The translations under genes and the position numbers were made by a program. 64,000 nucleotides of DNA, from NCBI GenBank assembly GCA_033032175.1, contig CM065334.1:6879705-6943704 (forward strand), given 5' to 3'. The stretch comes from Saturnia japonica (taxonomy: Eukaryota; Arthropoda; Insecta; Lepidoptera; Saturniidae). The notes under the pieces are model-generated. The model saw only the letters and a list, made by a program, of their open reading frames with translations, did not search any database and was not told the origin of the DNA. Shown in pieces: positions 26,801 through 39,933 of the stretch (position 1 is its first letter; each line of letters opens with the position of its first letter).

Positions 26801-29800
26801 AAAAAAATTTTTTTTTGTCTATCTGTCTGTTTTTAAGCTGATGTTATAAGGAATAACTTAAACTACTTATATTTTAGAAAAAAACAATTATGTTAAGGAT
26901 TATCTGCAATATGTATTATATTATATTGAAAATTGTTTGACGACGGTTTGTAAAACAGTTTAAGTTATAAATACATTTTTTTTTTGAACAGCATCCGCCC
27001 CAACAACAGCAGTATCAGCCGCCGCCACCCCAACAACAGCAACAGTACCAACCACCCCCGCCCCAACAACAGCAACAGTACCAGCCACCCCCGCCCCAAC
27101 AACAACAACAGCCGCAACAGGGACATTTGCATCAAGGTGGTCAGTATAATTTGGTGCTTATTGTTGTAACTTGATAAGTGAGAAGCTGTATGTGTCTCTT
27201 TGTTTTTTTTTCGTGATGCTAAAAATTTTATGATTTTTCATTAGATTACCGAAATGGAAAACTTTTAGTGGCCGATCAGTTGGTTGGCAGGCCCCATCCT
27301 CCTCCCCCCGAACAGTTTTCTCGTATATCTTTGAAGTTGTAGGTCCAGTGCCAGTAAAATTAAAATGGGATCACCCTTCAGGTATCCCCTACCCAAAAAA
27401 AGGAATCATTCAAATCGGTTCATAAACAAAGAAGAGTCAGTTAAAAAAATCAAAACTTAAGTACCTTCTAGCTGAAATCACACTTAACGCAGATCCTGTT
27501 CTAGAAACGCGACAAAACAGATTACAGTCACTGCAATGAGTAAGGTTTATGATGGACACAGTCACATAAAGATCCCTACTTTGATTATTGGGTATATGAC
27601 GGAACGGGTAAACAATATAGGCGTATTTCGTTTGCAATGATACAGCCTTTAGCGCGATCTTTTGAACTAGGGCGGAACTTCAGCTAGGGCGGGCCTTGAG
27701 CCATTACGACAAGCTTGTTATGATAGACTGATCCCAATAATACGAACATACAGCGCATCCGCACTGTACGACGTTCTCTAAAAGAGTGTGTGGAATAATT
27801 TTTTATTTTTTTCAGATCCTCAGCTCTTGAATCCCGCTAATATTGCCCAGGAAAGAGAGTAAGTATGTTTTGAAGTTTTTAAAACTCATGTGAGGTGCAG
27901 AATTATTGTTTAGTTGTAATCATTAGAAAATTAAGATTTGCAATAATGAAGTCGGACTGTCCCAAGTAAAGAGAAATCCCCAAACAATTCGGCATATAGG
28001 CAAAACATATACCAATGATTCCATCCTGAAATGAAATTTTAAATTCTCACAGTCATATCCAAGAGCACATGGAAGTTCCGATCGACACTTCAAAAATGTC
28101 CGAGCAAGAATTACAATTCCACTATTTTAAAATGCACGACGCCGACAACAACAACAAATTGGACGGATGCGAACTCATCAAATCTCTCATTCACTGGCAT
28201 GGTGAGTTTTTAAAATTTAATTAATTGATTTTCAAGAATTAGTTGTATGTAAATGCTGGTCTAGTATTAATTAATTTGAAATGGACAACATAGCCGTCTT
28301 ATAGGAACTGCATTTCTACTATTTAAAAATACAGTAACGTCGAAAATAAATATTTAAACGGATGTGAACTCATCAAATCTCTTACTTTTATGATGAGTTC
28401 ATAAATGTATGAAGTACTTTAGAATTATTGTTATGTATATGCTGGTTTAGCATCAATTAATTTGAAATGGACAATTTTGCCATGTCATAGGAATTACAAT
28501 TCCACTATTTAAAAATACTCTAGCGCAGAAATTAATTATTTAAACGGATGTGAACTCATCGAAACTTTTACCCATTTTCATGAGAGTTCATAAATGTGTA
28601 AATATGGATCAAGTATTTGGATGCGTTATCCCTTCATGTTTTTCTTGGGTTTTGATTAATTGCCATCAGAGGGTGTTGAAGTCGTGTTGCAGAATTATCT
28701 TAACCCTTCAATGCATAGTGATGTATTTCTTCATAATTTGTTTTTTTCAAAGTTTTAGTTATTTTTAAAGTGCATGTTTTTTTATATAAAGGAAATTAAA
28801 TGAATAGTTAAAGTGCAAAGGTTAAAGCTTGTTTATTTTTTATAAACATTTATGTAGATATACATCAGTATGGAATTATTTTAAGGGTAATATCACTATG
28901 TCAATTGATTTATTCGTCAAAACGCTATTTGACGTATTTATAAGCTATGTTATCAGGAGTACAGTAAAATTATTTATAAATTAAAAATTCTATATATTTT
29001 TTGTTTTTACTTTTCCTTGAATGGAAAAGGAGATGTGGATATTTTTTTTATTTTATGTTGGGAGGTGAAGGTCTTCTATGTATGTGTTTTTTTTTAATGT
29101 CATAATTGAAGGTGTTAGTGGATTATGATGGACGTTTACGTAAAAGTTTTTATTTCCTATTTACGTTATTTATTACGTCAATAAATATTTACGTTAATTT
29201 CTAATTAAAGGAGTGAAAGTTATTGTTCTTAATTTGTTGAAAATTAAGACTTGCCATGTTAGAAATCCCTTATCAAAGAAAGTAATAAATTGTTTTGTAA
29301 ATGAATTGAAGAACGTACATTCCTACAACAACAATTCAAGTAACAGCTATGGAACTTGGCACCCGTTAGATCTCAGCTTTTTTATCGTTGACAACGAATA
29401 CCCCGAATGTCGTTTGTACTGAATTTCGCCCCTTTTCGGGATTAGTTATATCATTTATATCTGTCTTTCTCATCTTTCTTCTCGCTCATGTATCGAAATG
29501 TGCATAAACGCGATATGTCCTTGATATTTTACTTTCAATTCAGTCCAATTATCCAATTGCCGCATAAGGCCCGGCACCCACTGGCGGCGGTACAGCACGG
29601 CAGGGGCTCCTTCGTCACCCTATTTGTAAGCGTACATTGAGGGGAAGTATACCACCGTATTCCTTAGGTATGCCGCGACGTCCTTAGGCATGCCGAGACG
29701 CACTTAGTTTCTGAACAAAGCGTGCTGGTCGTGGGTGCTGTCTGTTCTCGGCATCGTGAAGAATGCCGAAGCGTCCCAAGGGATGTCTTGACGCTTACCA

Positions 29801-30298
29801 CGGCACTGTTTCTGTACCTACGACCATTATCATTGAAATTTTAACTTTAACGTCATTATCGTCGTATTATTATTAATTTCTTTCAAAAATCTTTTATCGT
29901 GCCATACCGCCCGTGGGTGCCGGCCCTATGAAGTTTCCCTTGAAAATCATTGATTCATTATTCGCTAATACCTTCAATTGAAATTCATAATTTTATGTGG
30001 TGTATAATAAAAAAAAATGGAAGGCGTTTTATCATGTGTGTTTGTTTGTTTTTATGTTTCCGTCCTTGCTTCGGGTGGTCGCTTACCATCAACCCATCTA
30101 GTAGAGCAAGGGCACAAGCAGGAAGGTCAGCCGCAAGGTTCGCCGCCCGTCGGCGAGAAGATCTTCGCTGACCAGGAACTAATTAACCTGATCGATCCAA
30201 TACTCAATATGGATGATAACAACCGGGACGGTTATATCGATTATCCGGAATTCGTTAGGGCGCAGCAGAAGAGTCAAAAGCAACAAGGAAACCAATAA
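23829..30298 (+). CDS. MCFD2: MCFD2-like EF-hand protein, main isoform
   Basis: Coding starts at 23840. The exons are 23829-23938, 25771-25812, 26992-27136, 27816-27858, 28053-28201 and terminal exon A 30102-30298. Phases 0, 0, 1, 2, 1 close to 675 bases, 224 aa. Residues 1-16 are a signal peptide ([16 protein letters not shown]). Exons 2-3 give a Gln/Pro-rich insert (QYQPPPP units) that shorter homologues lack. Exon 5 carries HYFKMHD and the first EF loop, D139-E150 ([12 protein letters not shown]). Exon A carries the second loop, D198-E209 ([12 protein letters not shown]). The HYFKMHD-x-loop-LDG-x-EL layout is that of MCFD2, the soluble Ca-dependent partner of LMAN1/ERGIC-53 in ER-to-Golgi cargo transport. 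An AATAAA overlaps the stop (30294-30299). Three more terminal exons follow downstream. An alternative acceptor at 30110 also keeps the frame. Confidence 0.88.
24400..25770. repeat. Repeats in EF-hand gene intron 1
   Basis: 24590-24790 is an 'aaccgacttc' family copy (its start is worn; 'cataatttctttgtttatga' is clear). 25565-25725 is an inverted copy of the 'gtagcgacatct' family, with the 'gcgagagatgtcgctac' part doubled. 25180-25450 has a run of 'ggatactg/ggatatt' variants. No exon is seen. Confidence 0.55.
26150..26910 (+). repeat. Repeats in EF-hand gene intron 2
   Basis: 26150-26220 is an 'agctatgccccacagttcta' fragment. 26325-26610 is a copy of the 350-base 'gtcgccctaagcacgaaatt' family (see 54900-55265). 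26700-26910 is an 'aataacagctttttactaaa' fragment. Confidence 0.6.
27236..27460 (-). repeat. 'aaccgacttc' repeat, inverted copy
   Basis: The reverse strand reads 'cttctttgtttatgaaccga', then 'gatacctgaagggtgatccc' and 'ggcactggacctacaacttc'. It lies in intron 3 of the EF-hand gene. Confidence 0.6.
28285..28600 (+). pseudogene. Two decayed tandem copies of EF-hand exon 5
   Basis: After exon 5 the genome repeats exon plus intron twice. Copy 2 (about 28305-28480) and copy 3 (about 28487-28600) keep 'atttctactatttaaaaata' or 'attccactatttaaaaatac' and 'ggatgtgaactcatc' from the exon, plus the intron text 'tttgaaatggacaa'. The loop codons are lost and stops are present, so both are pseudo-exons. 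Confidence 0.8.
29566..29932. mobile_element. MITE with GC-rich inverted ends
   Basis: Left end 'aggcccggcacccactggcg'; right end (reverse complement) 'agggccggcacccacgggcg'. The unit is ~367 bases, without ORF, in the intron before terminal exon A. I see no clear target duplication, so its superfamily is open. Confidence 0.6.
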
Positions 30299-38960: not shown

Positions 38961-39787
38961 TGATAAATAAATAAAAAAATTGCTTGATATACCGATGCTC
39001 ACACTCCTAAAGTTTCTTTTTTTTAGGTATTTTTATATGAATTATATTTTTGCAGTTTATTAATTAAGAAATGATTTTCAAATAAGATCCCCGGTATAGA
39101 AATTTTATGGGGAGTGAACTTAATACAAGCGTTAACTGAAAAACGTTATGTTTACTGTCTAAAATTCCATAAGAATCGATTTTACCATAACAATTCAATT
39201 TTTGTTTTACTGACATTTATCGTAACACTAATCAGTAAAGATGTAAATATCAGATTTATGCGCCATCTAGTAATAAATACTAGAATTATTTTTGAGTTTA
39301 CACCTTTAGAATCTATTTTCTTATTTTGTGTGTACACATTTTTTTAGAATATCTTACTTGTTGTTATTGTTATTCATTTTATAAATAACTGAGGTGATGG
39401 GCTTTTGGTTATGTAATAAACCTAATTATAATTTACTATTATTAATCTAATTGGATTTTGGAATAAATTGGTTATTTACTATTATTTGTTTTCCTTTTCC
39501 TTTTATAATAGTCTGAAGAGGTGAGTTATAATATTTTCTATTGCGTTATTTGAATAATATTTTACTGCAAATTGGCTAACGCTTGACCATAATGGAGTGT
39601 ATTTTTAATTAAGAACTACATAATCTAAACTGTAAACAGGGTGAAAAATATCCTTCGAAGATGGAAGAGGTTGTAATGAAAATGATTTAAGCCACAGTTT
39701 CACAATGAAAAATGTTATACAAAATTAATTAAGCTAACTATTTTACGTCTTTGGAAATTAAATTTATTTGAATGTACATATTTTCAG

Positions 39788-39933
39788 ATGACGGTAGGCC
39801 AGCCTCCGAGACTTACATGTACAAAGATGAAGATCTTACTGAAATTGTTAATAGCGCCCTCAAGCAAGCTGACCGCAACAACGATGGATTCATAGATTAT
39901 GCGGAATTCCGGTCTGCAAGTGCAAATACATAA
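39788..39933 (+). CDS. MCFD2: Alternative terminal EF-hand exon C
   Basis: After 'catattttcag' the frame fits phase 1 and gives 48 residues, then TAA. It contains DEDLTEIVNSALKQA, then the EF loop DRNNDGFIDYAE, and ends FRSASANT. With the common exons it gives 207 aa. AATAAA occurs at about 40014-40022, ~85 bases after the stop, as expected for a real 3' end. Exons B and C resemble each other and exon A in helix-loop layout, so they arose by duplication of one terminal exon. Confidence 0.75.

What the first reader, a model, noticed from the sequence alone, without database searches (positions are those of the whole stretch)
28053..39933. Four interchangeable terminal EF-hand exons in an MCFD2-like gene
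Exon 5 (first EF-hand) ends in phase 1. Four separate downstream segments (30102, 36074, 37717, 39788) each begin after an AG, fit phase 1, encode one complete EF loop ([48 protein letters not shown]) and end in their own stop. At least two have a close poly(A) signal. So one gene could make four secreted proteins differing only in the second EF-hand and tail. In vertebrates MCFD2 has a single form that pairs with LMAN1 for cargo export. A swapped half could retune cargo or LMAN1 binding. To my knowledge such a cassette has not been described.
Basis: partly seen in the sequence, partly recalled or inferred. Interest (0 to 1): 0.88.

Follow-up and report, generated by a model that had tools for sequence, protein, structure and literature searches.

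The report
Insect MCFD2 gene swaps its ending
A butterfly or moth gene for a helper of protein export carries four alternative last exons, so that one gene can probably make up to four versions with different second calcium-binding halves, and similar alternative endings turn up in many other insects, which suggests an unremarked way to vary a protein-export receptor.

Summary
An MCFD2 orthologue (coding exons 1-5, window 23840-28201) is followed by four phase-1 segments, 6a-6d, each with one EF-hand loop and its own stop. They are the only four EF-loop matches in six frames of 64 kb (0.02 expected). No second EF1 exon was found nearby. One-gene use is strongly supported by relatives, not by RNA from this species: in 21 of 22 hand-picked insect species, annotated isoforms share an identical constant part and switch tails exactly after ...SLIHWH|. 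Tails A (6a), C (6c) and D (6d) form orthologous classes in Lepidoptera; non-A tails occur in seven insect orders. 6b is weaker: AAG acceptor, no orthologous group. All 213 proteins held keep a complete second Ca loop. The C-terminal residues resembling human MCFD2, whose end matters for ERGIC-53 binding, are kept in 69 of 75 A tails and 1 of 138 others. Zn-lid histidines and cargo-perturbed helices map to the constant part. I infer that exon choice retunes the lectin partner or residence rather than the cargo-contact helices. One ERGIC-53-like and one VIP36-like lectin locus were found in this genome. No paper found describes this; public annotation already lists the isoforms.

The parts
23840..23938 (+). 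coding exon 1: start codon, signal-peptide-like N-terminus (by eye)
   Evidence: GT donor, open frame; relatives in alignments begin alike
25771..25812 (+). exon 2, Q/P-rich
   Evidence: AG/GT borders
26992..27136 (+). exon 3, Q/P-rich
   Evidence: AG/GT borders
27816..27858 (+). exon 4
   Evidence: AG/GTAAGT borders
28053..28201 (+). exon 5: lid helix and first EF-hand; ends ...SLIHWH| in phase 1
   Evidence: the last 38 residues vary at 17 positions among 213 relatives and end HWH in 213 of 213
30102..30298 (+). terminal exon 6a (class A, canonical); tandem acceptors at 30102 and 30105; AATAAA overlaps the stop
   Evidence: class A support 99/95, rows from six orders
36074..36189 (+). terminal exon 6b (W at loop position 10); AAG acceptor, unresolved orthology
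37717..37886 (+). terminal exon 6c (class C)
   Evidence: CTTACAG acceptor; class C support 99/92
39788..39933 (+). terminal exon 6d (class D)
   Evidence: TTTTCAG acceptor; class D support 99/95
28305..28382 (+). decayed copy of part of exon 5, in the following intron
   Evidence: blastn 74% identity, E 4.8e-9
28491..28566 (+). second decayed copy of part of exon 5
   Evidence: blastn 76% identity, E 4.8e-9; both lie in a 186-bp tandem array 28235-28597

Best explanation
This is the insect MCFD2 gene, with tandem alternative terminal exons. Exons 1-5 encode a signal peptide, a Q/P-rich linker, the N-terminal lid and the first EF-hand. One of 6a-6d is then spliced to exon 5, with its own stop and 3' end, and supplies the second EF-hand and the C-terminus. 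Shown here: the anatomy, the conserved junction, identical constant parts in relatives, tail classes A, C and D, and intact Ca loops in the tails held. Inferred: class A is the ERGIC-53 (LMAN1) partner as in vertebrates, because it alone as a class keeps the C-terminal residues; the other tails still fold on Ca2+ with the same EF1 and Zn lid, but bind ERGIC-53 differently or not at all, shifting the protein toward another partner or toward secretion. Not shown: tissue control, RNA in this species, use of 6b.
For: Four EF-loop matches in 64 kb, all at these exons, 0.02 expected. EF1 in the own genome only at exon 5 and at a paralogue on C14 (best candidates only); tblastn in the window found only exon 5 and its decayed copies. 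In 22 species picked by me from printed names (56 proteins), isoforms of a species have 100% identical aligned constant parts; 21 sets hold different tails, 27-58% identical to the first listed. The four Papilio xuthus isoforms (A, B-type, C, D) are listed with one contig length, 1,163,533. The tail tree supports A (13 rows), C (7) and D (10); mean identity within hand-picked A, C, D sets is 81, 59, 55% against 30-38% between them. Six non-A proteins that begin with Met and carry 150-198 residues of constant part come from contigs of at most 1,289 bases (P0001, P0119, P0137, P0169, P0174, P0213), most likely spliced RNA. A mosquito model, P0016, strings together A and three further tails in order. 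C-terminal motif: 69 of 75 A, 1 of 138 non-A; after thinning to 70% identity 20 of 25 and 1 of 82. Best PDB match is human MCFD2 for isoform A and for Papilio C and D (B-type not searched).
Against: No RNA reads and no other lepidopteran genome could be searched. RefSeq isoform models are automatic. 6b has an AAG acceptor and groups with neither Papilio nor noctuid B-type tails. 6c lacks AATAAA/ATTAAA for about 1.08 kb. The tail tree has 46 columns, its bootstrap had not settled, and it leaves non-A tails of other orders unresolved. The C-terminal motif was written after seeing class A tails; a score against the human residues also separates the classes, but with overlapping ranges (medians 5 and -2). 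Proteins were found by similarity, so decayed tails would be missed. Partner inference rests on human data. The structure models were poor (pTM 0.27).
Confidence: 0.85

Rival explanations
1. The distal exons belong to separate MCFD2-like genes that have their own 5' exons.
For: Distal exons begin 6-10 kb beyond 6a, with repeats and a THAP-domain ORF between. A true MCFD2-like paralogue exists on C14.
Against: No EF1-like exon found between them; in relatives such tails are joined to an identical constant part.
Confidence: 0.03
2. 6a, 6c and 6d are real alternative terminal exons but 6b is a decaying relic that is no longer used.
For: AAG acceptor; short tail; no orthologous group; its best score to any held tail is 93, against 147-283 for the other three exons.
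Against: Open frame, complete EF loop, phase kept, upstream pyrimidine content like exon 5's, ATTAAA at about +48 and +81; Papilio xuthus, Spodoptera and Helicoverpa have W-type tails that score best against 6b, Papilio's only just (66 against 64 for 6a).
Confidence: 0.4
3. The alternative tails are splicing noise with little functional meaning; selection keeps only class A.
For: Non-A tails diverge faster (within-class 59 and 55% against 81% for A).
Against: 138 of 138 non-A tails held keep a full EF loop; C and D are conserved as classes across butterflies, pyralids, noctuids and tortricids.
Confidence: 0.08
4. The swap changes cargo choice, ERGIC-53 binding staying the same in all isoforms.
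For: EF-hand pairs often bind peptides with helices of both hands (recalled).
Against: In human MCFD2 the FVIII peptide perturbs helices a2 and a3 (PMC7069976, passages), which I map to the constant EF1; the C-terminal residues differ between A and the rest.
Confidence: 0.25

Closest known systems
Vertebrate MCFD2 (partner of ERGIC-53/LMAN1)
   Same: Two EF-hands, lid and linker histidines, best PDB match
   Different: The papers seen speak of vertebrate MCFD2 as one form; here one gene offers four second halves, and the N-terminal part is long and Q/P-rich
Tandem duplicated exon substitution events (mutually exclusive homologous exons; PMC9741552, passages)
   Same: Homologous exons swap one region of a protein
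   Different: Here the exons are terminal, each with its own stop and presumably its own 3' end; four copies; an EF-hand cargo co-receptor. That paper counts 154 fly genes; its lists could not be read here, so the fly orthologue CG17271 may be among them
EF-hand exon switches of ACTN1/ACTN4 (PMC9741552, passage) and CaV2 exons 37a/37b (PMC7235277, passages)
   Same: Alternative exons change an EF-hand or EF-hand-like domain
   Different: CaV2 exons 37a/b are internal and code for part of an EF-hand-like domain; in ACTN1/4 only one form keeps Ca binding, whereas here every tail held keeps the loop

Membership tests
MCFD2 | Sequence best matched by human MCFD2 among solved structures | tested here: met
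   Isoform A E 2e-24; Papilio C 1.4e-18 and D 4.3e-21; B not searched
MCFD2 | Pair of EF-hands with complete loops | tested here: met
   Pfam EF-hand_7 above cut-off for all four isoforms; EF2 loop complete in all four
MCFD2 | Four lid histidines (human His51, 55, 99, 101) | tested here: met
   HIQEH and HWH of exon 5 align with human HIMEH and HVH; H[ILM].EH in 201 of 203 relatives long enough to test and HWH in 213 of 213; role from PMC10944485 passages
MCFD2 | C-terminus needed for ERGIC-53 binding | tested here: inconclusive
   Human-like residues kept in 6a (FVRAQQ), not in 6b, 6c or 6d; classes 69 of 75 and 1 of 138; the human requirement was seen only as a paper title; binding not testable
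MCFD2 | Binds ERGIC-53 in a Ca-dependent way | not testable with these tools
   An ERGIC-53-type locus is present on C28
Tandem alternative terminal exons | Homologous exons, same entry phase, own stops | tested here: met
Tandem alternative terminal exons | Exclusive use of one exon per transcript | tested here: inconclusive
   211 of 213 relatives held carry one EF2 loop; the two with more, mosquito models P0016 and P0121, look like annotation joins; no RNA from this species
Tandem alternative terminal exons | Own polyadenylation signal | tested here: inconclusive
   AATAAA or ATTAAA within 400 nt for 6a, 6b, 6d; only TATAAA for 6c

The most novel reading that the evidence does not exclude
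Insects run a one-gene switchboard for ER export: a constant Zn-lid and cargo-contact half is spliced either to the A half, which docks on ERGIC-53, or to one of several diverged halves that release it from ERGIC-53 and send it to another partner (for example the VIP36-type lectin) or out of the cell as a secreted Ca-binding protein, under tissue control.
Probability: 0.3. Interest if true: 0.82.

Novelty: new variant of a known kind. Interest (0 to 1): 0.62.

Why it matters
Cargo receptors are few and cargoes many; how one ERGIC-53/MCFD2 pair serves a varied secretome is open. A gene that swaps half of the soluble subunit while keeping lid and cargo-contact helices fixed would be a ready-made set of natural chimeras for separating lectin binding from cargo binding. 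It also bears on the statement in a 2023 review that MCFD2 has no clear orthologue in lower eukaryotes (PMC10317151, passages), though another paper notes putative invertebrate orthologues (PMC7069976, passages): insects have an obvious one.

Tried and rejected
Separate genes for the distal exons: rejected for want of an EF1 exon and because relatives join such tails to an identical constant part. Chance EF loops: rejected. Structure prediction of Papilio C and B-type isoforms (P0038, P0102): mean pLDDT 58-59, pTM 0.27, EF1 half poorly modelled, so no fold search was run. Orthology of non-A tails between orders: the 46-column tree does not resolve it, so I do not claim one ancestral cassette rather than several expansions. 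ERGIC-53's MCFD2-binding segment: a simple pattern in the 10 kb fetched around and upstream of the first C28 lectin match found no convincing match; its first exon may lie further away. One of the eight lectin matches, on C28, had a stop inside. Tandem 104-bp repeats between 6a and 6b, each with an acceptor-like site and AATAAA, as decoy terminal exons: genome copy number could not be checked, the machine being busy. Prothoracic-gland link: a silkworm table lists an MCFD2 isoform X2 gene model at a gland/brain ratio of 3040.8 (PMC5336252, section 12 read), but its neighbour by number is neverland (7089.2), and here a Rieske-domain gene converges on 6d, so overlap of 3' ends could explain it. 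The homologue lists were truncated at 120 rows (of 724 and of 441; the third gave 35 in full) and two of three queries used non-A tails, so counts of A and non-A are not prevalences. Two fused mosquito models (P0016, P0121) are counted among the 75 A tails, although the motif test read their last, non-A, loop. The 22 species were hand-picked from printed names.
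Full report
What is there. The window lies in a 580-Mb genome held as 402 contigs (C31:6879705-6943704), lepidopteran judging by its closest relatives. Five coding exons, 23840-28201, join in one frame with GT-AG borders and encode a signal-peptide-like start (by eye), a Q/P-rich stretch, and an exon-5 peptide [49 protein letters not shown], ending in phase 1. Downstream at 30102/30105, 36074, 37717 and 39788 are four segments that continue this frame, each with one EF loop and a stop.

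Is it chance? The EF-loop pattern occurs four times in six frames of 64 kb, exactly at those segments; 100 second-order Markov simulations gave 0.02 on average and never more than one. Each of the four conceptual isoforms exceeds Pfam's cut-off for the EF-hand pair. At DNA level the four exons do not match one another at E 0.01, so any duplication is old; as peptides they do match (tblastn).

Which gene is it? The canonical isoform's best solved relative is human MCFD2 (E 2e-24). The same holds for Papilio isoforms with C and D tails. A second, more distant MCFD2-like gene sits on C14, with one EF2 loop in the 20 kb read, plus strand.

One gene or several? In the own genome EF1 was found only at exon 5 and on C14 (only best candidates are scored); within the window tblastn found only exon 5 and fragments of two decayed copies behind it. 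In public proteins I picked 22 species with two or more isoforms in hand (56 proteins): aligned constant parts are 100% identical within each species, and 21 of 22 sets contain different tails. The twenty-second, Zerene, has two A tails that differ by one residue at the junction, as a tandem acceptor like the TAG|TAG of 6a would give. The Papilio xuthus set has four isoforms, scoring best against 6a, 6b, 6c and 6d respectively, the 6b match only just (66 against 64 for 6a), and all listed with one contig length. Six non-A proteins that begin with Met and carry 150-198 residues of constant part come from contigs no longer than 1,289 bases; in this window the coding stretch from exon 1 to 6d spans 16 kb, so these contigs are most likely spliced RNA. 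That three UniRef records (Riptortus, Lygus, Homalodisca) are cDNA-derived is recalled.

Tail classes. In a 61-row tree of 46 columns, whose bootstrap had not settled, A (13 rows, from butterflies to a sand fly, a beetle, a cockroach, a bee and a louse), C (7) and D (10) are supported groups, each with the window's exon; C and D share a weaker fork (94/75), and 6b pairs weakly with a beetle tail (90/62). Non-A tails from other orders are unresolved, so one ancestral cassette or several expansions are both open. Non-A tails are seen in Lepidoptera, Trichoptera, Diptera, Coleoptera, Hemiptera, Hymenoptera (one sawfly, Cephus) and Blattodea (Periplaneta) (orders other than Lepidoptera looked up for one species each). 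An Anopheles epiroticus model, P0016, strings together A and three tails that match three separate tails seen in other mosquito proteins, in that order, so a mosquito seems to have the same layout, canonical exon first.

What is fixed and what is swapped. In human MCFD2 the Zn-lid histidines are 51, 55, 99 and 101 (PMC10944485, passages); residues 98-110 form a loop without electron density in crystals (PMC3912170, passages); an FVIII peptide perturbs helices a2 and a3 (PMC7069976, passages). The histidines and, by my mapping, those helices fall in exon 5: the junction comes right after the residue aligned with His101, inside the disordered loop. H[ILM].EH is present in 201 of 203 constant parts long enough to test, HWH in 213 of 213. 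The swapped part is the second EF-hand and the C-terminus. Deletion of three C-terminal residues of human MCFD2 affects ERGIC-53 binding (seen only as the title of Nyfeler 2008 in the reference list of PMC13384778). Residues resembling human FAKSLQ after the loop are present in 69 of 75 A tails and 1 of 138 others, or 20 of 25 and 1 of 82 after thinning. The pattern was written after seeing A tails; scoring positions against the human residues instead gives medians 5 and -2 with overlapping ranges. Each of the 213 tails keeps at least one full Ca loop, though tails that had decayed would not have been found.

How it most likely works. Exon 5 is spliced to one terminal exon; the choice is coupled to 3'-end formation. 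The A form is the ERGIC-53 partner; the other forms keep lid, EF1 and Ca folding but lose the A-type C-terminus, so I expect altered lectin binding and possibly secretion. The review PMC10317151 (passages) says that MCFD2 lacks a retrieval signal and is secreted in the absence of LMAN1. The fly orthologue CG17271 (a record of that name matches) is counted among seminal fluid protein genes, whether of the transferred or non-transferred set I did not see (PMC8457112, passages), and is listed with ergic53 among salivary-gland genes (PMC12043239, passage); both fit a secretory role but say nothing on isoforms. A Pfam search of this genome gave eight lectin matches in two loci, one most like ERGIC-53 and one most like VIP36 by one exon each, so the four tails would probably meet one ERGIC-53.

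Literature. Searches for MCFD2 with insect and alternative splicing (0 papers), CG17271 (10), MCFD2 with Drosophila (29, 20 listed), tandem exon terms (158, 20 listed), MCFD2 with ERGIC-53 and structure terms (8), silkworm (4), MCFD2 with alternative splicing and isoform (10), EF-hand with alternative terminal exon (1) and EF-hand with exon duplication (5) showed no description of this cassette in the listings, abstracts or passages seen. One survey counts 154 fly genes with tandem exon substitutions (PMC9741552, passages); its lists were not readable here. Public annotation already names the isoforms.

Verdict. Real, conserved and functionally interesting; the mechanism kind (homologous alternative exons) is known, the terminal EF-hand form in a cargo co-receptor is a new variant. 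6b remains doubtful.

Noticed in passing
window 28235-28597: Two decayed partial copies of exon 5 in a 186-bp tandem array within the next intron: relics of EF1 exon duplication.
   Followed up: partly
window 31322-32046: Seven tandem copies of a 104-bp unit whose consensus has an acceptor-like TTTTTGCAG and an AATAAA, between 6a and 6b. Possibly a decoy terminal exon, possibly just a satellite.
   Followed up: partly
window 41999-50761 (minus strand): Probably one convergent gene: a Rieske-domain ORF at 49609-49950 (Pfam E 2.3e-17), likely neverland (name recalled), and a last exon whose stop at 41999-42001 lies 2.07 kb beyond 6d; that these belong together is inferred.
   Followed up: partly
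silkworm gene model Bmb000190 (PMC5336252, Table 1): An MCFD2 isoform X2 model with a prothoracic gland to brain ratio of 3040.8, next by number to neverland. It could be a gland-specific tail or reads from the convergent gene.
   Followed up: partly
window 30099-30107: Tandem TAGTAG acceptor at exon 6a; two Zerene isoforms differ by one residue at the same place.
   Followed up: yes
window 35160-35405 (minus strand): THAP-domain ORF (Pfam E 9.5e-10) between terminal exons 6a and 6b.
   Followed up: no
window 22102-23034 and 52206-52535 (minus strand): Transposase ORFs: Tc3/DDE_3 type upstream of exon 1, and a partial Transposase_1.
   Followed up: no
C14:13586688-13587762 (L007): A second MCFD2-like gene with different exon borders and one EF2 loop in the 20 kb read on the plus strand.
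   Followed up: partly
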